Below, in pieces: positions 9,518 through 47,699 of a DNA stretch of 64,000 bases. Position numbers and translations under genes: made by a program. This DNA comes from Lyophyllum atratum (Eukaryota; Basidiomycota; Agaricomycetes; Agaricales; Lyophyllaceae): positions 310,001 to 374,000 of the forward strand of contig JACGCN010000041.1 of assembly GCA_014905825.1 (NCBI GenBank), given 5' to 3'. Numbering within the stretch: the first letter of the stretch is position 1; each line of letters begins with the position of its first letter. The notes under the pieces are model-generated. The model saw only the letters and a list, made by a program, of their open reading frames with translations, did not search any database and was not told the origin of the DNA.

Positions 9518-10438
9518 CTACTCATCCCCATTGATCTCCACAGTGCCTCCAGTAGTGGTTATCTTGAGCTCGGGAAGCTTGGAGGCAGTGACGATGTCGG
9601 AGGTTTGAACAAGCCCAGCTTTGAACCAGGCACCGAGGCACATGAGCGAGCGCATCGATTCCGCAGATAGGCGATTCCGAATATGAGATAGCAGGATGCG
9701 GCCTTGTGAGAAGACACGCTCGACATCAACGGAGGTAGCTAAGACTGTAGTCAGTGTCAGAAAATGACTCAACAAGTTATGTACGCACCAGGAATACTAT
9801 GGTAGTTCAATGCCATCCTTGATAGACGAGGATAGATACCTTGCCGTGCCCTCCACCACCCAAGAACATCAACAACCTTCTCCCTATCTTCCTCCAGGTA
9901 GCACGTCAATTCATCTGTGACTGTCCGAGATGCTGGACCCGTCTCGAGCATGTCTGAGAGGTCGTCGAAAATGTTGGCTGATGGCGAAGACTACCAGATG
10001 ATTCGTCAATCTTCCAAGACAGGGAAACAGACGAGGGACTTGCCTTCGTTGACGGCGCAGCTGTTGATGGGTTTTCGACCTCCATGTCTGCATACGACCT
10101 TGCAAACTCCTCCTTGACAATGTCGATAGCCGTGTCAATCCAATCCTCTGGCCATCGAGCCTTCTTGAGATAATCGAGCTTGTACGAAGGGTGGAGAACT
10201 GTGGTGGGGATGCAATCAGAGAAAGGTGACTCGGACATCATAGATGATAAGTAGACTTACTTGTAGCGATCCGATAAACGTCAGACTTGTCGGTGAGGTC
10301 GTAGTAATGATTGAGTAACTTGGCACCGACTGCGAGAGCGGCCTTGATCGCGGGCAAGTAGTTTGACTCGGTAGCATCGGTAGCCAGCGCCTCGTCGATC
10401 TTGTTCATTGCTGGTAAAACGCGTGCGATGTTCAATGA
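9518..10438 (-). pseudogene. hAT transposase, C-terminal exons including the dimerisation domain
   Basis: The last exon (9518 to about 9750) has the hAT C-terminal dimerisation signature ATSVDVERVFSQGR..LSHIRNRLSAES. The exon above carries DELTCYLEEDREKVVDVLGWW and LALNYHSIPG-like sequence, where the WW is typical of hAT catalytic-region ends. The next encodes LHPSYKLDYLKKARWPEDW, and the segment up to 10438 encodes SLNIARVLPAMNKIDEAL and LLNHYYDLTD. Introns are short. The coding sequence is interrupted at 10438 by a MITE but reads through in frame if the MITE and one TGA duplication are removed. Confidence 0.88.
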
Positions 10439-11252
10439 CACAGGGTGCGAAGAACAATATTTTCATGAAAGGTATCTTGAACAAATAGTGAAGGAACACC
10501 ATATATGTTCAGATTATATAGAGGTATCATATTGTGAATCAAACATTGAATTTCATACAAGAAAATATAGTGAGCAAAGTTATTATATTATCAGAGAACA
10601 TATTCTGAATAAATTCACTGTATTTTCAGTAAAAAAGCAAGCATTACATGATGAATATAAGCTATATTCTTCCAAGATAATTGTATGAAGGACAAAGTGA
10701 AAATATACTTCATATTTGCAGCATATGTCCCCTGAAGGAATTCAAAATATGATCACACTATTTTCACAATATGATCAGTGGAGAAATTGTAAATATATCT
10801 GCAACATAGTGAGATATTCAGAATATCTTCACCATATTGCTAGATATTTAGAATATTTTCACCACGTTGCGATTTGATCCTGAGGTATGGTGAAGGTATT
10901 TTAAGATCTTCCCTAATCATATTGTGAAAATAGTGTGAAGATATTTTGAATTTTATTAGGGGTTATATGCTACAAATATGAAGTATATTTTCACCATTTC
11001 TTCTATGAAGTTATCTTGAAAGGATATACCTTATGTTTATCATATAATGCCTGCTCTTTTTCTGAAGATATGATGAATTTATTCAGAATATGTTCTATCA
11101 TAAGATCACAATTTTGCTCACTATATTTTCTTAGCTAAAACTAAATATTTGATTTACAATATGATGCCCTTGCATAATCTCAGTATATAAGGTATTTCTT
11201 CACTATTTGTTCAAGATACCTTTTATGAAAATATTGTCGCTTGCACCCTGTG
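10439..11252. mobile_element. CACTA-like MITE A (814 bp) inserted in the hAT transposase
   Basis: Both ends read inward as CACAGGGTGC, followed by a closely matching TIR that includes ACAATATTTTCATRAAAGG and TCTTGAACAAATAGTGAAG. A 3-bp duplication (tga) flanks it at 10436-10438 and 11253-11255. The body is AT-rich, non-coding and full of TTCACAATAT-type inverted motifs. CAC-beginning TIRs with 3-bp duplications fit the CACTA superfamily. Confidence 0.88.
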
Positions 11253-11255
11253 TGA

Positions 11256-12256: not shown

Positions 12257-12442
12257 TGTAGCGGTGCTACGGGGGGTCTTGCGGTTCACGCTACGTAAGC
12301 TTGACCAGTCTTGGTATTTGCTACGTATGCGTGAGGTTACAAGTGTCTAGTTTGTACATGTTTACTACAGGCCTGTTATAGACGACACCGAGGGTGTCGC
12401 CAAACAAGCCAAACAAAGCCCAGTAAGGGCGGGGCCCTTACA
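12257..12442 (-). repeat. 3' LTR of the gypsy element
   Basis: 186 bp, identical to 23565-23750. It contains small perfect stem-loops, for example CGACACC/GGTGTCG at 12383-12399, TAAGGGC/GCCCTTA at 12424-12440, and the palindrome ACAGGCCTGT. Confidence 0.97.
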
Positions 12443-12455
12443 TACCCCCCTTTAA
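12443..12455 (-). other. Polypurine tract of the gypsy element
   Basis: On the minus strand this reads AAAGGGGGGTA immediately before the TGTAAGGG start of the 3' LTR. Confidence 0.85.
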
Positions 12456-12842
12456 GATTGCCTAACGCAATCTTCCAGGAGGGATAGGGATATCGATGTA
12501 TTAGTCTATAGGATAGACTTATACAATAAACTAGTGGATGATATATGGGGCCTAGGACCCGTCGTCCTAGGCATGATTCTGCAAGTATACCGACTGCGTA
12601 GAGTCGGTACCTTAGTAAAGTAAAGTGTACGATCACTATGACATAGTGATCGTAACATAAAGTGAGGACCCGTCGTCCTTATATACTAAAAAGAAACCCA
12701 AGGATAGTTCGAGTAGTCCTTGGGCATGAATCGATAATTCACAAAAAAGCCTATCGATTCGAGTATCGATAGGCGCAACGCCATGACTGGGTCAGTGAAG
12801 ACCGCAATGACGGTTTACACCGTCGGTCGCCTACCCGGGAGT
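12455..12842 (-). other. 3' untranslated region of the gypsy element: array of stem-loops
   Basis: At least eight near-perfect inverted repeats occur in under 400 bp. They are 12455-12473 (7-bp stem), 12503-12519 (7), 12550-12572 (9, loop CCGTC), 12588-12609 (8), 12628-12654 (13 bp around a single A), 12665-12679 (5, the same CCGTC loop), 12697-12724 (8) and 12749-12774 (10). No protein-like frame spans the region. It lies between the ORF3 stop and the polypurine tract, so it would be in every full-length transcript. The function is unknown; packaging, RNA stability or translation are possibilities. Confidence 0.9.
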
Positions 12843-15592
12843 TCACTCCTTCATCGCGGTATCCTCAAGCATGTCATTGGTCGGATTTTGTATGACCTCC
12901 ATGCTTGTGGATCCTTGCGTCGACTCCTGGTTGGGCGGACGTGTTCCGTCCGTACCAGGGCTGGTTGTGATAACCGCAGACGCGAGGGGCACATTGAGGG
13001 CCGTCGCGGGATCCACGATGGTTTCAGGGACTGAGGTAGTCCCTGCGACTGTGGTCGAAGTCGCGGGAGGAGGGGCAGGGTTGTCGACGGGTGTCATTGC
13101 AACGTCGTTAGTGGACGACGTTGACCCCATCATGTCTTGTTGTGCCACGCTGTAGTCTTCACGCCGTGGCAGTAGGGTGAACAGGGGATCAGCCCCAACA
13201 CGTACCCATTGACGACTTGCAAAGCAGTCAATAGATTGTGTATCAAATTCATGCCGCATTAGCGCTTGAATGCGCGTAATGTCGGCTTGAGTTGGATGGC
13301 GCCATCCAGACCACTCGGGTATGGTCTGGGGCACCCCGATACGGTGGAGACGATCGATGCGTTGATCATCGATCGTTCGGAAGAATTCGACTAAGGGAGG
13401 ACCACCCTGTGCGTTATATGGGTAGTGGTGTTCCCACCACCGGTTGGCATACGCATAGGAGTGGTCTACCCATGCAATGGGTATCCCAACATTAATCATG
13501 TGCTCCAGCACATGTAAATCGGTAAGGCGTTCGACACCATCTGGTCGAACGAACCGGTTCAGAGTCACAGTTTCTCCTGGAATGGCCGTGATCGTCCTTC
13601 GCGGACGATCCGGGTGTGCCGCGTAGTATGCTGCTACAGCCTCAGCATACAACCCAGGTCGGGCTAGTATGCCCAGGAAGATTCGTGTGAACCATTGTAC
13701 ATCTGCCGTCGCGGACGGCAGGAGTACAGCCAATAATCGAAACCCAAAGATCGATGGGTAGTAAACGCGCATCGCATAATCGATTGCGATGCCGGAAAAA
13801 GAATTAACTGAGCCAGGTCGCCCATGGTGGGCGACCTGCTGAGCCCAGCGTTCAATATTGAACGCCTCTTCGCTCGTCGGAGGTGGCAATCCGGCACCAT
13901 GGCCCGACTTGCGTGGTTTGGTCTTGAGAACGCCAGCTGGGCGTTCAACAGGAGGGAACGAATTCAACCTCGCGTCCTTGGGGAATGGATTGTCAAGGCG
14001 CGGGATATCAGGATTTTCCCATGCCGCATTCAACGTAGCATCGTGCCAACTCGAGTGTAGGCACAATGCTAGGCGAAGGAACTCCTTCAGCAGTTTATAC
14101 GCCTGAAGGCGATCTTCTCGGGGGAAGTTCTTCTTCGGGAACTGCACGAGGTTGACCAATTGATTCAATTGGCGGGGATTCATGGGGAATCCTCGTGGTA
14201 ACAAGCTGTAGAGTCGTCCTTGGGGGACGTACTCCCGATTGTTCGCTAGTTCAAATCGTGACGCGGCCGCAGCTTCGTGCGCCGCGTACACACGATTGCT
14301 GTAGGGAGAATGATAGATATTATAATCTAACATGCCGAGGAATGAGTTATCCCTCTCCCAGCGGTTCTCGCGGAACACAACCCCGATGTTGTCAGGGATG
14401 CGTCCCGGTAGTTCGAGCTGAGCTAAGCGGCGACGCTCTGCCGCTTTCTCTTCGCGTTTGCGATCCCGGTCTTCTCGTTGACGAGGGGTCAACTTGTCCT
14501 CGTCATCGGAACCGCCTGAGGACTCGCCATAATCGGTGTCCCCAGTTGGTTTGTACTGATGCCGGGGTGGCGATGGCGGTTGAGGTGTAGGAGCCGGTGG
14601 CCGTACAGCGACAGCAGGAATACGAATCGTTATGGTCTCTTGGACACCTCTACGATTCGGGACCTGTACCCTTGGCTCAGGTGGAGGAGGAACATCGGAT
14701 AGTTTTGTCTGGGGCGTCGCAGATGCCCCAGACGTACTCTGGACGTCCGCTGATTCCGATGCAGACGGTTGCCTATCCATCGCTAGTGGGGATGGCTGCC
14801 GTCCGCGCCTTGTCGGCTCCGGGCCTACAGGCCGATCAGGCCGTCCTGGACCATCTCGACGCGCGTCTCGTGGACGCCGTCGCTCATCGTACGGAAGCTC
14901 TGGATAACCGCGACGCTCGTATGGTCGTCGGTCATCGAAGTGTGATCTCCTCGCTTGGTCGAGGCTCTCAACTTCTTGACGTTTCGGTGGGCGATATGCA
15001 GATTCTCCTCCGCGATCCGGAGAAGACATCGCCAATCTTTTCCTACTAGGGCCTGCCTGCTCGTGTGAGGCGCGCCCATAGTCTAGGGACTCCTGCCGAG
15101 CGAGTCTGCGCTCGAGCTCGGTCACGCGTTCGCGTGCTTCCAATAGGTCATCGAGGAGCATCCCAACGACGACCTGCGCCGTTCCGTCATCGTTTCGTAG
15201 GAACTGCACCATATCGGATGCAAATCCGGCGCGCTCAAGTCGTCGGAATACCCGTTCGAGAGCGGCGTCTCGAATGAGTGTTTCCCTGTTTGATGTTTTG
15301 GAGGAGGACGACGCCGTGCGGTCGTCCTCACGTCCTTTTCTTTGAGGGGGAGGAATATCCCCTCGAGGCACCGGTGCTGGTGGTATCGGGACCATGGGAC
15401 GCTCCGGTAGCGATCCCTGGCGTCCCTGATCCGGGGTGTCGTCCATTCGGTCGGTCGGCTGCGCTGGCCATGTTCCTTGAGTTGAGTGCAGGGCCGGCTG
15501 CGCGTGCCAGTCCTGCCCAGGTTGCTGGTAAGGCACCGGATTCCCTGAAAATCCGGTGTTCTGAGGTTGGGTATAGGGCGGCTGCCCCATGA

Positions 15593-15632
<40 letters not shown>

Positions 15633-15986
15633 TTGCGGTTGTTGTTGTTGTTGTTGTTGTGGATGTGGTTGGAAGTACATCGGCTGGGGAAGATAGGTCA
15701 TATGCGGGTGACCGTATCCGCCCATCGGTTGTTGCATGTACGGCTGGTTCATGAAACCAGCCGTCGGCATCTGCATTTGGTTCGGATTTTGATATTGCCC
15801 GTATGGGGCGTACGCGTTGGCGGGTTGGACAGGTGGCTGTTGCGCCGTGTTTTCTGGGAAAACACGGCCCTGAGCCCCTTCTCCCCCCATAAGGCTCGTT
15901 CCCGAGCCTGATGCTGCGCTGGAGCCACCGTGTGGGCCCCAGGCGTTCGGGTTCTGCTCTTGCTGGTTGGTTCCGTCTTGTTCCAT
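12843..15986 (-). CDS. Gypsy ORF3: 1047-residue protein of unknown function in the env position
   Basis: An intact frame starts at the ATG at 15986-15984, about 145 nt after the pol stop and in a different frame. Residues 1-180 are low-complexity (Gln/Pro/Gly/Tyr/Met-rich, with a long polyglutamine run). A Glu/Arg-rich segment with possible coiled coil (ERVTELERRLARQESL) follows. Next is an Arg/Asp/Pro-rich region, then an Asp/Glu/Lys-rich basic-acidic stretch (TPRQREDRDRKREEK). A more globular half (about 545-960) has tryptophan- and tyrosine-rich segments such as WFTRIFLGILARPGLYAEAV, and a Ser/Thr/Pro-rich tail ends the protein. I see no signal peptide, membrane span or furin-like site, so it does not look like an envelope protein. 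I see no zinc knuckle either. A second gag-like or nucleic-acid-binding role is possible but unsupported. Confidence 0.85.
15593..15662. repeat. Trinucleotide (CAG/CAA) microsatellite encoding polyglutamine in ORF3
   Basis: Interspersed TTG/CTG repeats on the plus strand (CAA/CAG on the coding strand), giving about 20 glutamines with one proline. Confidence 0.95.
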
Positions 15987-16131
15987 TGGATCGAGGTGGA
16001 TCGGATGGGTGTGCTACGTGTCGACTGTGGGTGTCGAGCGAAAGAGGACTTAACCGATTTATGGTTTGCGGGCGCCATCACTGATCTCAACAATTGATGC
16101 TTCACGTGACACGCACATGACCGCGACGCGT

Positions 16132-19100
16132 TCATTTGCGTTTCGCGAGTCCCCGCGGCGTCTTGACACCTTGCAATTCAAGGTACCGGCCTAAGGCCTC
16201 AAGGTTCTTGCACCCATCATGAGGTTCCCAGGTGGTGTCTCCCAGACTCCACCTGACTTCGTACTCTAATTTCTTATCTTCGGTCCATCGGTGACCCAAG
16301 ATTTCATCAACGAACCATTCTTGGTCGTTGGGAGCACCAAAATCATAGGGCTCCGGTTGAGCCCTATTGGGAAATAGCGCATCATTACTAGCATTATAAG
16401 GCCGTAGTAATGACACATGGAACGTAGGATGTATCCGCCGCGCCTGTAAGGCTGTCGGCAATTCCAATGTATATGTAGATTTTGCCGGAATAGCATTCAA
16501 TACTTTATACGGCCCAACGTATTTGGGACATAACTTCCTTGCGCGTCCTTTTGGCAAATTGAGGTTCTTGGTTGATAGGTAAACCAAGTCCCCTTTCTTA
16601 ATTTGCGGTTCTGCAGCTCGCTTCGTATTTGCATACGCTGTCTGAAAGACGCGAGCTTCAATAATATTATCATGTGCCTCTGCTAAATTCCTCAGAGCTT
16701 GTTCGGCATAAGCTTTGATTCCTTTAGGTAGCACTTCATCGGAGCGAATCTCCTTTATCATTGACGGCATATATCCACCGTTAAGTTCAAACGGTGCAAA
16801 CTTCGTCGTGGCCGATATGCTAGCGTTGATCGCAAATTCGCTCATCGGAACACGGTCAACCCAGTCTTTCTGATCGTGTCGTACCACGGCTCGAAAGATC
16901 TGGGCCACATTCCTATTAGCACGTTCGGTCTGACCATCCGTCTGAGGATGGAAGGACGTAGACATGAGTAGCTTTGTACCCATCATCTTGTGGAGTTCAC
17001 GCCACCATCGAGAGGTGAACTTCGAATCACGATCACTAACGATTGAGCTCGGTAGACCATGCAATCTTACTATTTCACGAAGGTAAATCCATGAAAGTTC
17101 AGCCGCGGTGTTCTTCGTGGTTACAGGTAACAGATGCACCATGCTGGTCATCCGACAAATTATAACCCATAGATAGTTAAAGCCTTTAGACTCCGGGAAT
17201 GGTCCAACGAAGTCCATTCCTATGGAGTCCCAAGGTTTTGTTGGTACGGGCAGCGAGTGGAGCTGTCCCGAGGGTTTCTGGTTTGATGTCTTCGTAACAT
17301 GACATGATTGGCATGTGCGACAGAACTCCCGCACGTCTCTAGACATGCTTGGCCACCAATACCATCGACGAACGTACTCGGACGTACGTTGGTCTCCGAA
17401 ATGCCCAAGCGTCTGATGCGCTTGTTCAATGATGGACGTAGTTAGGTCTGGTATACGTGGTACACACAGAACGGATTCGCCCGCGAGATTCTTAGTCCAT
17501 ATAAGGGTGTTCTTCATATTGAAGTGCTTATATCGTTCAGGCTTTTCTTCAATATAGTTGAAGAGTTTATCTTCATCATACCCCTTCGCAATACGATTAC
17601 GAAAGGCTTTGTCGACTAAATCTGGTGGAGAGGCCGCGGTAGCCTTGCCCATAAGTGCTTCTCCCAGAGTCATAGTCTCGCTTGCGTCCATGTTGACTGA
17701 ACCCTCACGTATCGACGGTTCATGATGTCGTTGGGACGCTCCAGGAGTAGCTTCATTCATAATCTGCGCTTCTAAGTCGCGATCTTCTTGCTGCTCTTGG
17801 AAGCGTTTACTACGCCGGATTTGGGCTTCGTGCATAGAACGCATTTCAACTACTTTGTCCACGACTTCTTTATATCGTGGAGGTGGTAGATCTTCTCCAG
17901 TAGGGTCGATTCGGGCATCGACATTCACATAGTCATGTATATCATGTACATCATTGGCTGTATCGCTTTCGAAATAGCGAGACAAGCAATCGGCCACTTT
18001 ATTCAAGTCGCCTTTGACGTAGGTAATGTCGAAGTCGAATCTAGCCATGTAGTCAATCCATCTCCGTTGACGTGGAGTAAGGTTTCCTTGAGTTCGAAAG
18101 AACTCTAGAGCTTTATGGTCGGTAATGATGTGGATCTTATATCCCACAAGTTTGTCCTCCCATTTCATTAGAGATTCCAGTATCGCCAGAGTTTCGCGTT
18201 CGTGTACCGCGTAATTCTGCTGAGCGCTGGTGAATTTCTTGGACATAAATCCAGCGGGTCGGCATTCGAGCCACGTCGGCCCTTGTCCGTACATGGCGCC
18301 GACACCTGATTTGGATGCATCGCATATCACCCAAATCGGTATGTCGTTCTTCGGCTTGATGGGTTGAATGATTGGTGTTTTACAGCAGATGCGCTTGATC
18401 ATTTCAAAACATCGCTGATGAATAGGTCTCCAATAGAATGAAGACCCGTTCTGCGTGATGGACATAAGGGGTCCGGTGTAGGCGGAAATATCTGGCAGAA
18501 AACTGCTCAGATAATTCACGAGTCCTACAAACCTCTGAATATCATTGTAATTCCGAGGTGTTCTCCAGTCCCGGATGCGCGCTAGCTTGTCAGCATCGGG
18601 ATGGATACCTTGGTCGTCGATAATATGACCAAGGCAATCAACTCGGTCTGAATATAATTCGCATTTCTTCCACTTTAGATACAACGAATATTCTCTGAGT
18701 CGTTCGAAAATAACTCGGAGATGTTGCTCGTGTTCCTCAATAGTTTCCGAAAAGATGAATATGTCGTCAAGGTAGACGTGCATAAATTTTCCAATAACGT
18801 CTCGAAAGATGGATGTCATCAATCTTTGAAACGTCGCAGGAGCATTGCAGTCTCCTATTTGCATGATATTGCTGACATATGTCCCGACGATCGTTGCGAA
18901 CGCCGTTTTCCATACATCTTTGAGCAGTACGCGAACTTGCTCATACGCATCCGTCAAGTCGATTTTTGAACGGATTTTTCCTCGGGCGACATCTTCACGG
19001 ATGACCTCTTGATCGGGTAGAGGTGTAACATCCTTTATAGTATTGTCGTTACGTTGCCGCGCATCGAGCGGCGTACGTAGCGATCCATCTTTCTTCGAAA

Positions 19101-20157
19101 TACATAGCAGCGGGGCTGCTTGTTTCACTGGCCGGTGTTCCCACCACCCAGCATCCACATATCTATTAATCTTCGCATGAAATTCATCACGAAGAGACAT
19201 GGGACATCTTGGAGCATGGTATTGATATTGTTTTGATTCATCAATGAGGTTAATCTCGTGATTAACCTCTCGCCATGGTGGTAAGGTCGGCTTCGTACCG
19301 CTGACCATGTCTTCAAATTCATCGTGCCATTGTTGTCTAAGCCTAGGATAGTCTTCTTCGGATAGACGACTATCGTCAGCTTTTCCTTTGCCTTTCCGTA
19401 AGGTATGAGCAGCTCGAATAGATGCTTCATCCCGTTTCGTTGAATCTATATCGAACCGAGCACGCAATTTATGAAGACTAAAGTCCCCTTCATCGCGTAC
19501 TGGTAATCGATACTTCGGTCGCACATAAGGCTGCTTCGGTTTGGCTTCAGTGAAGTCCATAACCTCAGAGATTTCATCGGGTTCGGGATTCCGATAAACT
19601 TCTCCAGGCAGCTGCTTATGCTGTCCTTCATAGGCCCTCATGGAGGCGACTACTTCGTTCCATTCCGCGGGCATGCGGTGATCATACATCCACTCGTAAT
19701 GTGGATTTGGTGTTGGTCTGTCCCAGAAGGACCGCGTACTCTTCTCAGTATTCTGCTGTGATTTTTCGTCCTGGTTTTCTAAGTCTTTATCGATCATCTC
19801 TTTGAGGCGATCGCGTAATACGCTTGAAGACGGTTCGGGTACCGTATCCAAGGTCACTTTGCTTGACGAAGCCACTGGTTGTGCTTCATCTGACTTCCTT
19901 TTTATTTTCGGTTTTTGTTGGTTGAGCCCCTTCGAGCGGCGCTCTTCCTTTTTCGCTGATTTCCTAGTCGTTTCTTTAGGGGTTAATGCCGGATACCCCT
20001 CTTTCAGAGTTTCCTGAAACTCTTCTTCCGATAACAAAAGGGCCCCATGGTCTTTTGGTAAACTGTTAATGGCGAGCCCCTCTGTACCGGGCTCGTCATC
20101 ATCGACTACGGTGGCTTTTCGTATAGAGCCTCCGTATCCTTCTTCCGGGCCATGGAG
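16132..20157 (-). CDS. Gypsy pol: reverse transcriptase, RNase H, integrase, chromodomain
   Basis: The frame is open from just after the gag TGA at 20158-20160 and in the same frame, with no ATG near its start, so it is probably a continuation of gag. Positions below count from 20037. The RT palm has DLTDAYEQVRV and the catalytic YLDD near residue 424. RNase H has WVICDASKSGVGAMYG. The HHCC zinc-binding region of integrase (HQTLGH..CRTCQSCH) precedes a core with Asp in GMDFVGPF (near 942), Asp in VSDRDSKF (near 1001) and Glu in GQTERANRN (near 1037). The C terminus is a chromodomain (EWFVDEILGHRW..YEVRWSLGDTTWEPHDGC), as in chromoviruses. No frame break is visible. Confidence 0.96.
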   Translation of the reverse strand, partial: LHGPEEGYGGSIRKATVVDDDEPGTEGLAINSLPKDHGALLLSEEEFQETLKEGYPALTPKETTRKSAKKEERRSKGLNQQKPKIKRKSDEAQPVASSSKVTLDTVPEPSSSVLRDRLKEMIDKDLENQDEKSQQNTEKSTRSFWDRPTPNPHYEWMYDHRMPAEWNEVVASMRAYEGQHKQLPGEVYRNPEPDEISEVMDFTEAKPKQPYVRPKYRLPVRDEGDFSLHKLRARFDIDSTKRDEASIRAAHTLRKGKGKADDSRLSEEDYPRLRQQWHDEFEDMVSGTKPTLPPWREVNHEINLIDESKQYQYHAPRCPMSLRDEFHAKINRYVDAGWWEHRPVKQAAPLLCISKKDGSLRTPLDARQRNDNTIKDVTPLPDQEVIREDVARGKIRSKIDLTDAYEQVRVLLKDVWKTAFATIVGTYVSNIMQIGDCNAPATFQRLMTSIFRDVIGKFMHVYLDDIFIFSETIEEHEQHLRVIFERLREYSLYLKWKKCELYSDRVDCLGHIIDDQGIHPDADKLARIRDWRTPRNYNDIQRFVGLVNYLSSFLPDISAYTGPLMSITQNGSSFYWRPIHQRCFEMIKRICCKTPIIQPIKPKNDIPIWVICDASKSGVGAMYGQGPTWLECRPAGFMSKKFTSAQQNYAVHERETLAILESLMKWEDKLVGYKIHIITDHKALEFFRTQGNLTPRQRRWIDYMARFDFDITYVKGDLNKVADCLSRYFESDTANDVHDIHDYVNVDARIDPTGEDLPPPRYKEVVDKVVEMRSMHEAQIRRSKRFQEQQEDRDLEAQIMNEATPGASQRHHEPSIREGSVNMDASETMTLGEALMGKATAASPPDLVDKAFRNRIAKGYDEDKLFNYIEEKPERYKHFNMKNTLIWTKNLAGESVLCVPRIPDLTTSIIEQAHQTLGHFGDQRTSEYVRRWYWWPSMSRDVREFCRTCQSCHVTKTSNQKPSGQLHSLPVPTKPWDSIGMDFVGPFPESKGFNYLWVIICRMTSMVHLLPVTTKNTAAELSWIYLREIVRLHGLPSSIVSDRDSKFTSRWWRELHKMMGTKLLMSTSFHPQTDGQTERANRNVAQIFRAVVRHDQKDWVDRVPMSEFAINASISATTKFAPFELNGGYMPSMIKEIRSDEVLPKGIKAYAEQALRNLAEAHDNIIEARVFQTAYANTKRAAEPQIKKGDLVYLSTKNLNLPKGRARKLCPKYVGPYKVLNAIPAKSTYTLELPTALQARRIHPTFHVSLLRPYNASNDALFPNRAQPEPYDFGAPNDQEWFVDEILGHRWTEDKKLEYEVRWSLGDTTWEPHDGCKNLEALGRYLELQGVKTPRGLAKRK

Positions 20158-23100
20158 TCACTCGCGCTTCTCAATGGATCGATACCGACGAGCTCGGCCG
20201 TCCGTATCTTCTAACGCCACGCGCACAGCTGGCGTCGCGACTCCATTGACTACCACCTGGTGGTTCTTGAAGTCCAGTATGACGTTATTGGCATGCATAA
20301 ATGGTGTGCCAATAATTACATCATATCGGTCAAAGTTCGCCAGGTCCATGTATACTGGCCCTTTGAACCCTGCCGTTTCAATCTGCACTTCGGTACCGTA
20401 AATGACCGAAGCGCGGCTACCCGTTGTTCCTAGTTGCAGAATCATCGGGTTCTCCAATGGGTAAACTTTTATCTTCGACACCTGCGCGAATGCAGGTGTC
20501 ATACCAGTAGTAGAACTACCGGTATCCCATAACGTCCATGCCTCTTGTCCACCTACGTTGGTGTAGGTAGCCAGGCACTCCTTGGTTTCCGCAGGGTAGA
20601 TAGGTCGTTGTATCTTATTCTTCCCTGCGTGTAACTGAACCTTTCGCATTCGAATGACATTGTCTTTCTCATTCTTCTTCTTATCTTTCGGCGGCGGTGC
20701 CTCCGAAATTCCAAAGAGTCGCTCATATGATTCTAGTTGTAAAGCATCGCCATCGGTCGACGATACTTCCCAGATTCCATGCATATGTTCAGAATCCGAG
20801 TCATCATAATCAAAGACTTCGACTTCGATCATATCGTCGTCATGTTCGCCCAGTTCGGACTCAGGACGATCGAGGTCATCATCTTCGGCATCTGCATCGT
20901 GCGCAGATTCCGAGTCATCGTCATTCGATTCACCTTCGACTCCGTCTACAGCCGTTCGCATAGCACGCATGTGTGCTCGCTGCTGCTTCTTTGGATCTGG
21001 GCACTCTTTTGCGAAGTGACCGGTTCGTCCGCAGTTGAAACACTTAGATCCACCTGCGGTCTTCTGATGGCTTGGTTTATCCATCTTAGCCATCGGCTGA
21101 TAGCTTGGCTTATTGTCGTTGGACTTATAAGGTGGTTTCGGGTCCACCTTATTATCCTTGCGATAATCGTCTCGCTTCTTGAACGGCGTCGGTCGACTAG
21201 ATCGGAATAATCCTTTCTTGTAGTCGCCGCGTCGTACAAAGACTTTCCTAGGAGCACCTTCGCGATGCTCCTGGTTTTCCTTAGCAGGCGTAGTGTACCG
21301 CTGTCGGGTTACACTAGCCGACTTGTCATAATATTTAGCCGTCTTCTTAGCAGATTCATAGGCTTTCGCAAGCGCTAAGAACTCCTCGGCTGTGTTAACT
21401 TCAGGCGACAATCCTTCATCGAATAGATGATTGCGCATATCCGTCGACATTGCTGACACGAATCGGTCACAGAACATCCAGTCCGTAACTTTAACGGCCA
21501 TATTCTGTGAATGATCGACAAGGGTGTCGAACAAGTCTTGAACGTCGGCATGCTGTTTATATGAGACGGCGTTGAATTCGTCACGCGCGTCTTGCATGGT
21601 CGACGGTAGGATAAATCGATCATAGAGACCGAATATAACCTCTTCGAACTTCCATTCTTCTTGAGTTCGATTGACATGAATGACATGCCGCACGAACCAT
21701 CGTTTGGCTTTGCCATCCAAAAACTCTAGTACCATGATTACACGTTCCTGTTCGAGATCAGGACCGCCTAGTCTGGATACTGCCATCAAGAGGACCAGGC
21801 TGTGAAGCCAGGTTTCTAACTCTTGGAACTTCGGACTGCCGGAATAAGTTCCGACCGATTTTGAATCGGTTCGTCGAGGCTTTAACCCTTCGGGTAGGTG
21901 TAGCCATGTTCCCAAACGCATGAAGATCAACTTGCTAATGCGTTCATGAATGAGTGCGCGATAACGCTCCTCATTCTGCTGTATCCCGTCAGCGATATCG
22001 GCGGTTCGCCTATTCGGTGCGGGCATCGAAAAACCCCTGCCATTGGCAGTTGATTGCGTGTATGCTGACGTCGATCGACGAGGTTCAGCATACTCTTCTT
22101 GATGCACGGGAGCTGTGCTTTGTCCGCGTGCTGACTTGTGGGTCTGCGTTTTGCTAGCCCACTGTCGCTTCATGTCGTCTATGGGCTGTCGCCCTTCGAA
22201 CACGATTCCCTGGTCCGAATATATGGATTTCTGCCCACTTTTGATATCGGCGATTCGTAAACGTTGATACGAAACTCGATCATCGAAAGTATCCGCGATA
22301 GGTACGCTATCGGGGAGTAGTTTCTCCGGTAAATGTGCCTTTCGCTTCTTTGGTGGGATTTGAATGACAGCGTCGCCGTCATTCTCATCCGAACTACTAT
22401 ACGATTCATATTTTAAATTGGCGATCGTCGGTGGTTCATACGACGAATCGCTAGTTCGTGGTACGCGAGAGTCGATTGTCACCGAGTGGCGTACTCGCTT
22501 TTCACGTCGAGCTGCATGCTCGCGCCGTTTATATTCGCTGGTACTTTCATCCGGTCGGCGCGACTGATGCATAATCGATACTGCGACAGCCCGTTCGTCT
22601 ATGGGCTGTCTCATTTCTTGCGCTACGGCCTGTGGAGTCACTGGTTCCACCCGTTGCTTTCCTTTATCTAACGGACGGATAGTGGAGGGAGCAGGCGAAT
22701 TTATTACTGATGATGCTATAGACGAAGTTCCCGTAGGGTACTTCTGCTTGTACAAGTAGATAACCCTAGGCAAGATTTCGAGCATCCTCTCGAAGTACTG
22801 CTCGCGAGTGCTGTTCACGGGAGTCACCCCATGCTTCACGGATAGAAGCTTTTGAGCGCACTCCTGCAGTCGTTCCCTTCGGCGGATACTGTCCATGCCG
22901 ATAGCCTGCCAAAAGGCGTCTAGCCTGCTCTGTTCGCGTTCGAGCTGCCTGTCGGCCTCGAGTACGTCGAACTCTCCATCCGAGGATTCTAGGCCCCGCG
23001 GGTCTGGAGTGAAAAAGTCATGGGAGGTTCGTGTACCCCCATGGTCGCCGTCGTCGCTCGAGAAGTTGCCGAAGGAGGGTCTAGTACCTCCTTGAGCTGG

Positions 23101-23466
23101 TCCTAATCGCATTGCCGGGCTGGCAATATTGACAGGAGGTAGACGTATTCTGCCTCCTGAACCACCGGCTTGAGAGGCGTCTGCTAGTTCCTGCGCTAGC
23201 GTTCGTCCTTGCGATGCCTGTCTTCGCATCGTTTCCAATGCCGGGTGCCTCGGCCGACTCGTTCCGGGACGAGACGGTTGCACTGAGGTCGTTGGCCTAG
23301 CCAACGACCCTGCTTCCGGATCCGTGTCTTCTTGTTTGAGTCGTGACGTTCGCAGTGGCCTCTCCGCTTCGAGTAGCGGAGGGGGCGTCACCGGCGTCGC
23401 ACCCTGTTGCGTGGGTGTGGTTGTTGATGGACCTGTGGTCGGGTCGGGTTCCGGATTCGTCGCCAT
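20158..23466 (-). CDS. Gypsy gag-protease
   Basis: 1102 codons from the ATG at 23466-23464. The N-terminal third is disordered (Ser/Pro/Arg-rich). A retrotransposon gag domain follows (for example ELETWLHSLVLLMAVSRL, GKAKRWFVRHV and FNAVSYKQHADVQDLFDTL). A single CCHC knuckle, CFNCGRTGHFAKEC, lies near residue 812. After an acidic linker comes an aspartic protease with LWDTGSSTTGM near residue 980 and the second conserved block YDVIIGTPFMHANNVILD. The frame ends at TGA (20158-20160). The next 40 codons plus pol follow in the same frame, so either readthrough or a single nonsense mutation separates them. Confidence 0.95.
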   Translation of the reverse strand: MATNPEPDPTTGPSTTTPTQQGATPVTPPPLLEAERPLRTSRLKQEDTDPEAGSLARPTTSVQPSRPGTSRPRHPALETMRRQASQGRTLAQELADASQAGGSGGRIRLPPVNIASPAMRLGPAQGGTRPSFGNFSSDDGDHGGTRTSHDFFTPDPRGLESSDGEFDVLEADRQLEREQSRLDAFWQAIGMDSIRRRERLQECAQKLLSVKHGVTPVNSTREQYFERMLEILPRVIYLYKQKYPTGTSSIASSVINSPAPSTIRPLDKGKQRVEPVTPQAVAQEMRQPIDERAVAVSIMHQSRRPDESTSEYKRREHAARREKRVRHSVTIDSRVPRTSDSSYEPPTIANLKYESYSSSDENDGDAVIQIPPKKRKAHLPEKLLPDSVPIADTFDDRVSYQRLRIADIKSGQKSIYSDQGIVFEGRQPIDDMKRQWASKTQTHKSARGQSTAPVHQEEYAEPRRSTSAYTQSTANGRGFSMPAPNRRTADIADGIQQNEERYRALIHERISKLIFMRLGTWLHLPEGLKPRRTDSKSVGTYSGSPKFQELETWLHSLVLLMAVSRLGGPDLEQERVIMVLEFLDGKAKRWFVRHVIHVNRTQEEWKFEEVIFGLYDRFILPSTMQDARDEFNAVSYKQHADVQDLFDTLVDHSQNMAVKVTDWMFCDRFVSAMSTDMRNHLFDEGLSPEVNTAEEFLALAKAYESAKKTAKYYDKSASVTRQRYTTPAKENQEHREGAPRKVFVRRGDYKKGLFRSSRPTPFKKRDDYRKDNKVDPKPPYKSNDNKPSYQPMAKMDKPSHQKTAGGSKCFNCGRTGHFAKECPDPKKQQRAHMRAMRTAVDGVEGESNDDDSESAHDADAEDDDLDRPESELGEHDDDMIEVEVFDYDDSDSEHMHGIWEVSSTDGDALQLESYERLFGISEAPPPKDKKKNEKDNVIRMRKVQLHAGKNKIQRPIYPAETKECLATYTNVGGQEAWTLWDTGSSTTGMTPAFAQVSKIKVYPLENPMILQLGTTGSRASVIYGTEVQIETAGFKGPVYMDLANFDRYDVIIGTPFMHANNVILDFKNHQVVVNGVATPAVRVALEDTDGRARRYRSIEKRE

Positions 23467-23564
23467 GTGGTCTCGGTGCTTCTTTGGGTGACGTGATGGT
23501 GAGTCGCGTCGTGTGTTCGGCCGTAGGTCGCGTCGTAGCTTCTAAGCTGGGTAGCTTAAAAAAA

Positions 23565-23750
23565 TGTAGCGGTGCTACGGGGGGTCTTGCGGTTCACGCT
23601 ACGTAAGCTTGACCAGTCTTGGTATTTGCTACGTATGCGTGAGGTTACAAGTGTCTAGTTTGTACATGTTTACTACAGGCCTGTTATAGACGACACCGAG
23701 GGTGTCGCCAAACAAGCCAAACAAAGCCCAGTAAGGGCGGGGCCCTTACA
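23565..23750 (-). repeat. 5' LTR of the gypsy element
   Basis: 186 bp, identical to 12257-12442. Downstream of it, on the minus strand, lies TTTTTTTAAGCTACCC; I could not match this to a tRNA primer. Confidence 0.97.
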
Positions 23751-36837: not shown

Positions 36838-39720
36838 TCCTCTACTGCAGAGAGTGAATAGATAAATTGTTTCCTGACGTAGTAATTGAAATCATGTTCT
36901 CTCATTAATTGTAACTAGTAGTAGCAGAAATAATTTTTAAAAAAGTAGCATGGTACGTATCCAGGACCTGTTGGCATTTACCAAGGTGTGCATTTGCGGA
37001 ATAGGACCTCGCAATTCCAGTGTTGATGTACAGTAGTCTTGGTCCTGACTTTGCTAAATTGATGCGATGAGTCAATACTTTCTTACGTAGCGAGCACTAT
37101 CTGTTGTTTGAGGTCATCGTGAAGCTTCTGGCCCAAGTTCCTGTATCTTTCTGAGTGAGACGGTTATGCTGGGAGATGAGGCCTCATTTCCAGTTTCTAA
37201 GAATGGTGAGCGCAGAAAAGCAGGACAAAGAAGGAAGGCTGGGGAATGCGGCAGCCTTTTGGTATAAGAATGAGTAGAGGTCACTTACTGAGCCTGACTT
37301 GCGACCAGCCAGAGTCTGTCTTTGTGGGTGGGAGGTACTGACTGGTGAGCGCTACAACATAATTAGCATTATGCGTTGGCCTATGATTTGCTCCACGCAA
37401 CAGAGCTGCTTGTGCGTCTATATAGACCTTGTCTTTCGGCTGGAGACCTGGGAGGACTAGGGTGATCCTGCAAAAAAGTGAGTATATGCATTCTGAATCG
37501 TGGACGACCCACCGAGCTGTTTATGGGCGATTTGGGTGTCGGTAACTCATCATCAAGAGGAGACGTCAGGGGAGTCGATTGTTGTTCAGAGCTTGGTTGC
37601 CACCCCTTGTTTCCGTTTCCTGCTGGGATTTTCCTGGACATTTGAGTGTAAGTGTGGATGCATGACGCGTATTGAAAGGAAAACCAGACCTTATCAGATG
37701 GGCGCTGTCTTGCGTTCCACAGTCTTTGTTGAATCCTCCTAATAGAATCATCAATGTAACGAGTGGTAGGCGAAATGTACGGCAAGACCTTTGTGCCGCC
37801 ATTAGCAAAATCCTTTCCTCCACTTGCTTCTTGACTTTCTGCAGGCTTAGCCTCTCATGGGTGAATGGGTCCAGCTCCTGTACAGCCTATAAGTTCTGGA
37901 ACACTGGTGAGTGAAGGTGACAGACCATGACACGCACACGTGATTTGGATTTTGAACGCGAGCATCATATCAGGTCGCCTCCAAGTCACGTCCTCCCCTC
38001 TATCTCCAAGACCAAGTATATCAAGACCATGGATCAAGTGTCACCAAATGCAAGTCCAAAGACCTTCAATTAAACTTCTTGCTGTGTTCCGCAAGGATCA
38101 CGCTTGTATTGTGAGCGATCGCAAAGACCTGCTGCTTGTGTATGAAACAGTGAGTTGGACATTCTTCTTGATATCCTGTAAACACTCAGATTTCTCTCAG
38201 TTTGGATCCACCATACTTCTCGACTGCGCATGGGATACCATGGACATCCAAAAGCAAAAACCAGTACACCATACACCACACTTTCATGGGTTGCTGAACC
38301 GTATCTGCACTCGCTGCCCCCTGTACGAAGGAACCCTCAACGACGACATTGACAAACATACTAGTGCCCTTGCCCACTAATAGTGTTTTGAGGTCCGGTC
38401 GGGTCCGGTTCTTGACCATATTTGGTCACAACCGCGACCGCGACCGGTTTGCATTCTCAAGGCGACGACCGGACCATGCACGATGCGGTTACGACCGGTT
38501 CAAGTCGGTTGTAGCCAGTTGCAACTGGCTACGACCGAGCATCAAGACATGGAGCTCACACATGAGGTGCATAGCGGGCCGCTATGCACCTCAAGGACAA
38601 CCATATCTCTTTGTATCACATCTTGGTCCATCTCGCATCTGTGAAGGTCGCCAAGTATGTGCACGAGTTTGTCTGCTCACACCCTTCAACTATTCCCGAA
38701 GGCCTGGGTATCCTGTGGCATGACATAGACTTTGATGAAGAGGACTGACGCTTACGTGACTTGTTGATACCAAGAAAATGGACTTGTAATTATGCTATTT
38801 GTTGTCGTACGTTGGGTAGATGTTTGAGCTGAGGAGAACATGAGTGACAAGAGGATAGGTGACTTACATTGGTGTTCATGAATTCAAAAAGCTCCCATGC
38901 CAGTCACTGTGATGCAGAGGAAAATTGCAAGCTGCTGCTCATTGCTCAAGTGCTTGGTTGGTGTGAGGCCACACTTGATGCAGAGTGCTTGGACAAGCTT
39001 CAGAAAGACATGAGGCGCCATTCCAAAGGCTCATCGAAATCGTCCCGGATGGCCTGAATATATGGTTATTTTTGGTGTCAGAAAGTCACAAGGTGCCAGT
39101 TGAATCACCTTCCAGAAGCTCATCTACCCATGCCTGACCCAAGAGAGCTGAAGTGTGCATAGGGACCTTCTCTCCTCCATGCTCGGCAGCAGCAGGGATT
39201 TGAAAGGCAGTGAAGGTAGTAACAGCAGCAGCAATCTTTCTGACTCTTTTCCGGTGCTCCAAGTGAGGGGAAACGGTCTTTTTCTTGCTTGTGACAGGAC
39301 GAAGAAAGACCATCGAGTTGTATAGCAAGAAAAATTGGTTTTCACGTGACGATGATGTGAACGGGCGCATCTGTGACGGTCTCGCAATTGTCACACCGTG
39401 ACTTGTGATGATAGCTAGAGGAGCTTCATGATACCGTTTACGGACATAGCTGCACATTTACTAATTGGTCTATCAACTAATTTGGGATCCCGAACAGGGC
39501 CTAAGTTCGTGCTCGTTGCCAACCCGCATTTTTTCGCATACCTCGCGAGTCCCTCGGTCCTTGTCCGGCGTCGTAATCGTCGTATCTTATGGGCATTTGG
39601 TCCGTAAAACCATTATTGTCAAACACTTTCCAAGTCTAAGTTCAACTCGGACTTCAACTTCACTTTCCGAAAGAGAAAGGCAAACTTCTTTGTCAGAATG
39701 TCCAATTTGAAGTGCTAGTC
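36838..39720. other. No gene recognised; palindromic repeats at 38381-38600
   Basis: No convincing coding segments. At 38381 a TAGTGTTTTGAGGTCCGG sequence again resembles a hAT-type terminus. It is followed by CCGGTC/GACCGG motifs and then a 31-bp near-perfect palindrome (38563-38593). Confidence 0.4.
38563..38593. repeat. 31-bp palindrome (15-bp arms around one base)
   Basis: TGAGGTGCATAGCGG at 38563-38577 is exactly complementary to 38579-38593. Confidence 0.95.
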
Positions 39721-41433: not shown

Positions 41434-41795
41434 TGTTGGAAACGCCTTCTGGGCTATCTAATCTCGTTCCCAACCTATCTCCCATCAACCATCTTGATGG
41501 TTGTTACTGTACAGCATTCCTGTGTTGCAGGCTGTGTTGGTTGCATCACCATCTTGATGGTGACTTACTACACTGCCTGTTGACCAGATCAGTTTCCTTA
41601 GCTACCATCTAACCAGTGCACACAGCCTTCTTGTGCACAGTATATATAGTAGATTAGATTGACCTGAAGTCCCCAGTTTCTAACTTCGGACTTCAGGTGA
41701 GTAGATCAGTCAGTTCCTCAATAAACTAGTTTCTAACTTCGGACTTCAGCTTGTAGCTGTCTAACCTGACATCCCTGCGCTTGCCTGTTCTAACA
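41434..41795 (+). repeat. 5' LTR of copia-2 (362 bp)
   Basis: Starts TGTTGGAAACGCC and ends TTCTAACA. It contains two hairpins, AACCATC/GATGGTT and CACCATC/GATGGTG, and a doubled 22-bp motif AGTTTCTAACTTCGGACTTC. The 3' LTR lacks 25 bp present here near 41466-41490. Confidence 0.96.
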
Positions 41796-46420: not shown

Positions 46421-46757
46421 TGTTAGAAACGCCTTCTGGGCTATCTAATCTCATCTTGATGGTTGTTACTGTACAGCATTCCTGTGTTGCAGGCTGTGTT
46501 GGTTGCATCACCATCTTGATGGTGACTTACTACACTGCCTGTTGACCAGATCAGTTTCCTTAGCTACCATCTAACCAGTGCACACAGCCTTCTTGTGCAC
46601 AGTATATATAGTAGATTAGATTGACCTGAAGTCCCCAGTTTCTAACTTCGGACTTCAGGTGAGTAGATCAGTCAGTTCCCCAATAAACTAGTTTCTAACT
46701 TCGGACTTCAGCTTGTAGCTGTCTAACCTGACATCCCTGCGCTTGCCTGTTCTAACG
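46421..46757 (+). repeat. 3' LTR of copia-2 (337 bp)
   Basis: Matches the 5' LTR except for a 25-bp deletion and a few single changes (for example TTCCCC for TTCCTC near 46679). Its last base is G instead of A. Confidence 0.95.
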
Positions 46758-47562: not shown

Positions 47563-47699
47563 TAGTAAGTCACCATCAAGATGGTGATGCAACCAACACA
47601 GCCTGCAACACAGGAATGCTGTACAGTAACAACCATCAAGATGGTTGATGGGAGATAGGTTGGGAACGAGATTAGATAGCCCAGAAGGCGTTTCTAACA
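47563..47699 (-). repeat. Truncated copia-2 family LTR fragment
   Basis: On the minus strand it starts TGTTAGAAACGCCTTCTGGGC and runs through both LTR hairpins. It stops at ..GGTGACTTACTA, where the full LTR would continue for about 220 bp. It retains the 25 bp missing from the copia-2 3' LTR. Confidence 0.93.

What the first reader, a model, noticed from the sequence alone, without database searches (positions are those of the whole stretch)
12843..23466. Short perfect inverted repeats pervade the coding sequence of the gypsy element
The same pattern continues inside ORF3 and gag. Examples: 13025-13045 (8-bp stem), 13100-13123 (9), 13293-13308 (16-bp palindrome), 13350-13376 (10), 13497-13514 (8), 13590-13610 (8), 13703-13721 (8), 13814-13838 (11), 13848-13865 (18-bp palindrome), 14707-14733 (9), 19246-19269 (10), 20477-20500 (9), 23287-23309 (10) and 23362-23381 (7). 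In 13.0-14.0 kb alone I find more than ten. They look sparser in the conserved RT and integrase cores. It resembles genome-scale ordered RNA structure known from some RNA viruses, but as discrete hairpins. An alternative is a replication process that generates palindromes, such as template switching by RT.
Basis: seen in the sequence. Interest (0 to 1): 0.88.

Follow-up and report, generated by a model that had tools for sequence, protein, structure and literature searches.

The report
Hairpin-packed coding sequence in a retrotransposon
A retrotransposon, likely from a mushroom-type fungus, carries dozens of short perfect hairpins inside its protein-coding sequence, about ten times the chance number for stems of eight pairs or more, and its copies differ less than half as often in the paired arms as at nearby sites, so the hairpins are likely kept because the element's RNA has to fold on itself.

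Summary
In detail: 14 of 14 listed hairpins are exact. The element (12257-23750, minus strand) has 35 perfect stems of 8+ bp (loop 12 or less) against 1.8 in dinucleotide shuffles; its three ORFs have 27 against 2.6 in codon-preserving shuffles. Copia ORFs, another gypsy and related gypsy family C are at or near chance. Families B and D (34-47% identical in gag and ORF3) are as rich as A, mostly at other positions. Copies differ in the paired arms at 0.41-0.44 of the local rate in A, B and D; in A the effect grows with stem length and is absent for loops of 17-30. So the hairpins are local, maintained and renewed. Arm-copying template switching fits poorly: changes fall on both arms in 16 of 22 comparisons (14 hairpins). 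I infer selection for local RNA folding, as in RNA phages, which carry fewer such stems per kb. Against a sense-RNA-only reading: G-U and A-C states are about equally common. Two 3'UTR hairpins show compensatory changes across families. The purpose is unknown; I favour limiting duplexes with antisense RNA.

The parts
12257..23750 (-). complete Ty3/gypsy element of family A, with a 5-bp target duplication GAAGG on both sides
   Evidence: identical 186-bp LTRs; flanking GAAGG read directly; ORFs
23565..23750 (-). 5' LTR (186 bp, TG...CA)
   Evidence: sequence
12257..12442 (-). 3' LTR, identical to the 5' LTR
   Evidence: sequence
20158..23466 (-). gag ORF, 1102 aa: CCHC zinc knuckle, aspartyl protease; 11 stems of 7+ against 2.4
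16132..20037 (-). pol ORF, 1301 aa: RT, RNase H, integrase; 10 stems of 7+ against 2.45
12843..15986 (-). ORF3, 1047 aa, no Pfam family; 25 stems of 7+ against 3.4, 19 of 8+ against 1.26
12443..12842 (-). 3' untranslated region with seven stems of 7-13 bp in 400 bases
12454..12474 (-). hairpin just upstream of the purine-rich tract; same place and pairing in families A-D, two pairs changed on both sides
12550..12572 (-). hairpin with GACGG loop, 9-bp stem; 5 of 9 pairs changed on both sides among A, B and D, two outer pairs not formed in D
12628..12654 (-). 13-bp stem, loop 1, the longest in the element
12749..12774 (-). 10-bp stem followed by T6
13025..13045 (-). ORF3 hairpin, 8-bp stem, loop 5
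13100..13123 (-). ORF3 hairpin, 9-bp stem, loop 6
13293..13308 (-). ORF3 16-bp palindrome
13350..13376 (-). ORF3 hairpin, 10-bp stem; the other subclade has 3 non-Watson-Crick pairs here, differing on both arms
13497..13514 (-). ORF3 hairpin, 8-bp stem, loop 2
13590..13610 (-). ORF3 hairpin, 8-bp stem, perfect only in the window's subclade
13626..13650 (-). ORF3 hairpin, 8-bp stem, perfect only in the window's subclade
13703..13721 (-). ORF3 hairpin, 8-bp stem, loop 3
13814..13838 (-). ORF3 hairpin, 11-bp stem, in all 7 copies aligned
13848..13865 (-). ORF3 18-bp palindrome
14707..14733 (-). ORF3 hairpin, 9-bp stem, in all 7 copies aligned
15740..15764 (-). ORF3 hairpin, 10-bp stem, in all 7 copies aligned
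15844..15868 (-). ORF3 hairpin, 11-bp stem (9 bp in three of the 7 copies)
19246..19269 (-). pol hairpin, 10-bp stem, loop 4
20477..20500 (-). gag hairpin, 9-bp stem, loop 6
23287..23309 (-). gag hairpin, 10-bp stem, loop 3
23362..23381 (-). gag hairpin, 7-bp stem, loop 6

Best explanation
The element's coding and 3' untranslated sequence is filled with short perfect local hairpins that are conserved among copies and differ in part between subclades, most likely because selection favours a genomic RNA that folds on itself locally, and the hairpins are likely built one substitution at a time within what the proteins allow. Shown by the calls: the excess over codon-preserving shuffles; its concentration at loops of 0-16; lower divergence in the paired arms, graded with stem length; hairpins present in some copies and not in others; different positions in different families; absence from family C, from the copias and from another gypsy of the same genome. 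Inferred: that the selected molecule is RNA and not single-stranded cDNA, and what the folding is for. My preferred function is that many quick-folding local stems in the RNA, and in any complement that is made of it, hinder long sense-antisense duplexes, which the host's RNA-dependent RNA polymerases and Argonautes would otherwise use to silence the element. This is the principle known for RNA replicated by Qbeta replicase, where intramolecular structure keeps template and product from annealing.
For: Excess, stems of 8+, loop 12 or less, dinucleotide shuffles: A whole element 35 against 1.83; B 19 against 1.0 (gag+pol) and 17 against 0.83 (ORF3+3'UTR); D 24 against 1.17 and 13 against 0.63; C 2 against 1.2 (gag+pol) and 0 against 0.57 (ORF3). 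Codon shuffles give the same picture ORF by ORF. Conservation: divergence in stems relative to sites shifted 45-90 bases: A 0.44 (95% CI 0.30-0.61, 7 copies), B 0.41 (0.19-0.80, 3 copies), D 0.42 (0.08-0.95, 3 copies, only 11 differences in stems). Graded in A: 8+ bp 0.36, 7+ 0.44, 6 bp 0.54, 5 bp 0.85, 4 bp 0.94; stems of 7+ with loops 17-30 1.03 (0.59-1.63) and 31-150 1.10. With the real differences between copies relocated to matched sites, fewer hairpins are lost than expected in every one of the 24 listed comparisons (for example window to C90, stems of 7+: 11 against 27.7, minimum of 60 trials 19), and over all ordered, non-independent copy pairs more are gained (314 against 172 for 7+, 182 against 95 for 8+), though not in each pair. 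Multi-pair differences lie on both arms (16 of 22). In stems G-U changes were less depleted than A-C in ordered pairs (0.60 against 0.37, 43 unique events). Folding of the sense strand is more stable than that of the antisense in A and B ORF3 (z -2.60 against -1.73; -2.18 against -1.48), beyond three simulations each that carry the same perfect stems. Five RNA phages, whose genome-wide structure is functional (recalled), show the same assay profile at 0.5-2.0 stems of 8+ per kb against 3.0 per kb in A. Two 3'UTR hairpins covary across families. The host genome has RdRP and Piwi domains.
Against: G-U and A-C states are about equally common at stem pairs (36:34; where most copies pair 16:17; 21:19; one-mismatch arms over A, B and D 122:108, 77:75 and 36:46 for 7, 8 and 9 bp), whereas selection on the sense RNA alone should tolerate G-U better. 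RNA phages are also 1:1 (27:29 at 8 bp), so the assay cannot decide, but it does not support a sense-only RNA either. In the relocation test on robust stems G-U was only slightly better tolerated (0.77 against 0.56, P 0.15) and gag alone showed no depletion (14 against 15.3), although the shift test gave 0.46 for gag. D shows no significant sense-antisense difference, and one copia and phage GA do. In D the loops were as little diverged as the stems. Family C, whose three copies are 98.9-99.7% identical and so probably recent, does without coding hairpins, so they are not essential for transposition. A smaller excess at loops 21-30 in A (12 against 4.5) does not fit a strict limit. The RNAi function rests only on the presence of the host genes.
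Confidence: 0.6

Rival explanations
1. Mutation, not selection: the reverse transcriptase folds back on its nascent strand and rewrites or corrects one arm from the other, which creates and maintains perfect hairpins without any function (template switching or quasi-palindrome correction).
For: Perfect stems without a clear G-U preference and strand symmetry; mechanism described for DNA replication (PMC8794818, passages read); a sharp drop in A from 16 stems of 7+ at loops 13-16 to 1 at 17-20 and a family-specific loop size (D median 4, A and B median 7, P 4e-7 and 1e-6), which a property of the enzyme could give; 3'-arm changes 30 against 5'-arm 16 (counts, P 0.054); two adjacent changes on one arm at 13626-13650 and a largely replaced loop at 12454-12474.
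Against: Multi-pair differences fall on both arms in 16 of 22 comparisons; Watson-Crick switches 3 against 14.3 expected if half of the corrections spread a mutation to the other arm (4 against 7.0 with the wider set, P 0.17); hairpins lie on conserved amino acids about as often as elsewhere, which wholesale arm replacement would not give; family C has a related RT and no excess at 8+ in pol or ORF3.
Confidence: 0.22
2. Dispersed packaging signals: the hairpins are many redundant Gag or nucleocapsid binding sites that help to select and compact the genomic RNA, each family with its own loop geometry.
For: Similar numbers in A, B and D at different positions; loop sizes differ between families; missing in one family as a whole; precedent in RNA viruses (titles and abstract starts in the listing).
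Against: No loop motif common to the families: the commonest loop 3-mers are CGA in A, ATA and TCG in B, TTC in D, not tested for significance.
Confidence: 0.12
3. The hairpins act at the level of single-stranded cDNA or double-stranded DNA.
For: Strand symmetry of G-U and A-C.
Against: Sense-strand folding is the stronger in A and B ORF3; no such structure in other elements that pass through the same stages.
Confidence: 0.05
4. Chance, base composition or codon usage.
For: None found.
Against: 0 of 300 codon-preserving shuffles reach the ORF3 counts; C ORF3 of the same GC (0.58, B 0.59) is at chance.
Confidence: 0.01

Closest known systems
RNA phage genomes (Leviviricetes: MS2, Qbeta, GA, PP7, AP205)
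   Same: excess of short perfect local stems in a mostly coding genome, G-U and A-C one-mismatch stems equally frequent, folding of both strands well below shuffles
   Different: about 1.6 to 6.5 times fewer stems of 8+ per kb than element A; RNA-only replication; loops of median 4 as in family D, while A and B have median 7
Genome-scale ordered RNA structure of positive-strand RNA viruses (recalled; papers seen only in the listing)
   Same: folding energy of coding RNA below shuffled controls in all three ORFs
   Different: here it appears as discrete perfect hairpins, in an LTR retrotransposon, present in three and absent in one of four related families
Yeast Ty3 genomic RNA (PMC11381356, passages read)
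   Same: Ty3/gypsy element whose RNA has structured regions including coding sequence
   Different: the passages read describe stable structured regions as up to 30% of the RNA, found by probing, and say nothing of an excess of perfect local hairpins; I had no Ty3 sequence to run the same count on
Template switch mutations that create and maintain RNA hairpins (PMC8794818, passages read)
   Same: a process that could yield perfect stems and compensatory changes
   Different: its expected footprint, several changes on one arm at once, is not what most comparisons show

Membership tests
Ty3/gypsy LTR retrotransposon | identical LTRs, target duplication, gag with CCHC, RT-RNaseH-integrase order | tested here: met
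Ty3/gypsy LTR retrotransposon | close relatives among known elements | tested here: met
   2149 proteins with E up to 0.001 match residues 1-500 of pol, best 120 listed; those listed with names are from fungi such as Agrocybe, Trametes and Peniophora, one named Ty3-I Gag-Pol polyprotein
Genome-scale ordered RNA structure | folding energy below sequence-order controls across the coding region | tested here: met
   mean sense z -1.62 gag, -1.60 pol, -2.60 ORF3, against -0.68 and -0.40 in two copia frames and -1.14 in C ORF3
Genome-scale ordered RNA structure | pairing present in the RNA in cells | not testable with these tools
   no RNA probing data
Genome-scale ordered RNA structure | G-U tolerated better than A-C in the sense strand | tested here: inconclusive
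   about 1:1 here and also in RNA phages; 0.60 against 0.37, P 0.15
Template-switch generated hairpins | several changes on one arm in one step | tested here: not met
   6 same-arm against 16 split comparisons in 14 hairpins
Dispersed packaging signals | common recognition motif in the loops | tested here: inconclusive
   loop 3-mers and closing pairs listed, no shared motif, no significance test; a structure-only signal is not excluded
Dispersed packaging signals | Gag binds the hairpins | not testable with these tools
   no binding data

The most novel reading that the evidence does not exclude
Some LTR retrotransposon families protect their genomic RNA with an armour of dozens of redundant, freely relocating local hairpins written into the coding sequence, denser than in RNA phages, which keep sense and antisense RNA from annealing and so blunt RNA silencing by the host; a related family in the same genome does without the strategy, giving a natural contrast.
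Probability: 0.3. Interest if true: 0.9.

Novelty: new variant of a known kind. Interest (0 to 1): 0.76.

Why it matters
If true, retrotransposon RNA is under the same kind of genome-wide folding selection as RNA phage genomes, at higher density, and the trait can be present or absent in related families. Three hairpin-rich families and one hairpin-poor family in one host with RNA silencing genes make the question of what such folding is for directly testable by comparing their small RNAs, packaging and copy numbers. It also means that codon choice in such elements is set in part by RNA folding.

Tried and rejected
Chance and codon usage: rejected. G-U against A-C as a test between RNA selection and a DNA process: first read as evidence for a DNA process, then shown not to discriminate, since RNA phages are also 1:1. 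The first version of that test scanned some loci on the antisense strand; it was redone on sense strands. First impression that stems vary as much as other sites came from pooling stems seen in any copy, including new gains; with stems taken copy by copy they are protected. Mutation spectrum: expected G-U to A-C ratio 1.00. Frame phase of the stems: 27, 14 and 15 of 56 in family A counted with overlaps, not followed. Loop motif: nothing shared. Rfam: no match. IMG/VR scan with pol: no match. First homologue search with ORF3: none, perhaps because its glutamine runs filled the candidate list; residues 500-960 gave 3. Papers: the listings show no title on perfect-hairpin-rich coding sequence in LTR retrotransposons; only the held open library was searched.
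Full report
What the element is. The region 12257-23750, minus strand, is a complete Ty3/gypsy element with identical 186-bp LTRs, a GAAGG duplication on both sides (read), a gag ORF with zinc knuckle and protease, a pol ORF with RT, RNase H and integrase, and a third ORF of 1047 aa without a Pfam family. The window lies in a 64.8-Mb genome of 151 contigs. The listed relatives of pol that carry names are from fungi such as Agrocybe, Trametes and Peniophora, and ORF3 has relatives in Lyophyllum and Tricholomella, so the host is likely a mushroom-forming fungus; this is inference.

The observation. All 14 hairpins are exact. Counting maximal perfect inverted repeats with loops of 0-12, the element has 58, 35 and 17 non-overlapping stems of at least 7, 8 and 9 bp, against 7.3, 1.8 and 0.3 in dinucleotide shuffles. 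In codon-preserving shuffles of single ORFs (300 each), ORF3 has 19 stems of 8+ against 1.26 (maximum 5), gag 4 against 0.63, pol 4 against 0.70, together 27 against 2.6, while four copia frames have none against 0.25-0.43. The excess is strongest at loops of 0-16: 16 stems of 7+ at loops 13-16 (1.6 expected), 1 at 17-20 (1.8 expected), then a smaller excess at 21-30 (12 against 4.5). The hairpins listed differ in sequence, apart from those of the two LTRs, so they are not copies of one mobile unit.

Distribution. The genome holds further copies of the family (A) and three related families. Among the four, gag identities are 41-49%, pol 68-72%, ORF3 34-50%. In a pol tree of 16 proteins A, B, C and D with one unnamed database protein form a clade with 100/100 support; within it only D with that protein is resolved. 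By codon shuffles (150 each) B and D are enriched in gag, pol and ORF3 (for example B pol 14 stems of 8+ against 1.05, D gag 12 against 0.63); C has 2 against 0.48, 0 against 0.67 and 0 against 0.67 at 8+, though its gag has 6 of 7+ against 1.87 (reached by 1 of 150). Another gypsy of the genome is at chance (6 kb, L054). Hairpin positions are mostly not shared between families: of 18 pairwise tests two have P of about 0.01 or less (gag B-C, 2 shared; pol A-B, 3 shared). Amino-acid conservation under the stems does not differ significantly from random placement in 9 of 9 tests (lowest value 0.077, D pol), so they were built within the protein's constraint.

Maintenance. Seven copies of A that cover nearly the whole element (one of them, C1b, with gag split and a stop in ORF3) were compared site by site. 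Taking stems copy by copy and comparing with sites shifted by 45-90 bases, divergence in stems is 0.44 of the control in A, 0.41 in B and 0.42 in D (the D figure rests on 11 differences). In A the ratio is 0.36 for stems of 8+, 0.54 for 6 bp, 0.85 for 5 bp, 0.94 for 4 bp; for stems of 7+ with loops of 17-30 it is 1.03 and with loops of 31-150 1.10; by region gag 0.46, pol 0.47, ORF3 0.42, 3'UTR 0.33. Loops are not protected in A and B; in D they differ as little as the stems. A different null, relocating polymorphic sites to positions of the same gene, codon position and base, gave 38 hits in robust stems against 59.8 (P 0.003): gag 14 against 15.3, pol 3 against 8.8, ORF3 15 against 22.4, non-coding 6 against 13.3. 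Relocating whole sets of pairwise differences gave fewer losses than expected in all 24 listed comparisons and, summed over ordered pairs that are not independent, 1.8-1.9 times the expected gains, though some single pairs show none. Hairpins perfect in the window's subclade and imperfect in the other copies at 13350-13376, 13590-13610 and 13626-13650 are shown.

Selection or mutation. If the RT copied one arm from the other, differences at several pairs of one hairpin should lie on one arm. They do in 6 comparisons and are split in 16; these cover 14 hairpins, and independent single changes would give about half on one arm. If correction restored pairing in a random direction, about 14 Watson-Crick switches would be expected in stems held by at least 4 of 7 copies; 3 are seen; with stems held by any copy it is 4 against 7.0, not decisive. 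These results favour selection by point substitutions. They do not exclude a correction process that always restores the older base.

Which molecule. One-mismatch stems are enriched for every mismatch class, with G-U and A-C about equal (77 and 75 for 8-bp arms in A, B and D); the mutation spectrum alone predicts equality. I first took this as a sign of a DNA-level process. The same assay on five RNA phages also gives equality (27 and 29), so it does not separate the two. Counted against relocation, G-U changes are somewhat less depleted than A-C (0.60 against 0.37; 0.77 against 0.56, P 0.15). Folding energies are lower for the sense strand than for the antisense in A and B ORF3, more than in simulated sequences with the same stems, not significantly in D; one copia frame and phage GA show a smaller difference too. 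RNA is therefore the likelier molecule, with structure in both strands not excluded.

3' untranslated region. Here seven stems stand in 400 bases. The one before the purine tract is at the same place in A, B, C and D, all 42 cells paired and two pairs changed on both sides; a GACGG-loop hairpin has five pairs changed on both sides among A, B and D, with two outer pairs not formed in D. Both were picked by eye from the lists and rest on 6 and 3 sequences. The first is also present in family C. Unlike the coding hairpins they keep their place between families.

Meaning. The density per kb exceeds that of the RNA phages (3.0 stems of 8+ per kb in A, 0.5-2.0 in the five phages). For RNA replicated by Qbeta replicase, fewer unpaired G and C went with less double-strand formation and better replication (abstract of PMC6913131). 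The host has 36 RdRP and 26 Piwi matches, pieces of fewer genes (20 of the 26 over the cut-off). My preferred function, hindering duplex formation and silencing, is an inference from these two facts. Packaging and an RT-driven mutational origin remain open. That loop sizes differ by family (D median 4, A and B 7) is not explained by the folding reading.

Noticed in passing
12843-15986: ORF3 (1047 aa, glutamine runs, no Pfam family) is a third ORF shared by families A-D; its residues 500-960 have relatives in Lyophyllum shimeji, Tricholomella constricta and one unnamed protein.
   Followed up: partly
12665-12679 and 12550-12572: The hairpin core GGACGACGGGTCC occurs twice in the 3'UTR, about 100 bases apart, with different outer flanks.
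   Followed up: no
12454-12474: The 5-base loop of the hairpin before the purine tract differs at 4 of 5 bases between subclades while the stem is unchanged.
   Followed up: no
38511-38532 and 38563-38593: An 11-bp palindrome and a 15-bp stem with a 1-base loop lie close together, outside the ORFs of 250 aa or more.
   Followed up: no
41546-41563, 46508-46525, 47570-47587, 56097-56114: The same 8-bp hairpin with a 2-base loop recurs in the repeats around the copia element and their inverted relatives.
   Followed up: no
L046, L038: Family C, near chance for short loops, has 8 stems of 7+ with loops of 21-25 against 1.7 expected.
   Followed up: no
10438-10784 and 10907-11253: Inverted repeat with 347-base arms, 82% complementary, 122 bases apart.
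   Followed up: no
G000 C62/C35, C1/C105, C13/C46: RdRP and Piwi matches come in pairs of nearly equal score on different contigs, as if two nuclear haplotypes were assembled.
   Followed up: no
L034 and L045 (family B): In family B the 5' arms of the hairpins are G-rich (0.38 against 0.27 overall); in A and D the figures are 0.29 and 0.28.
   Followed up: no
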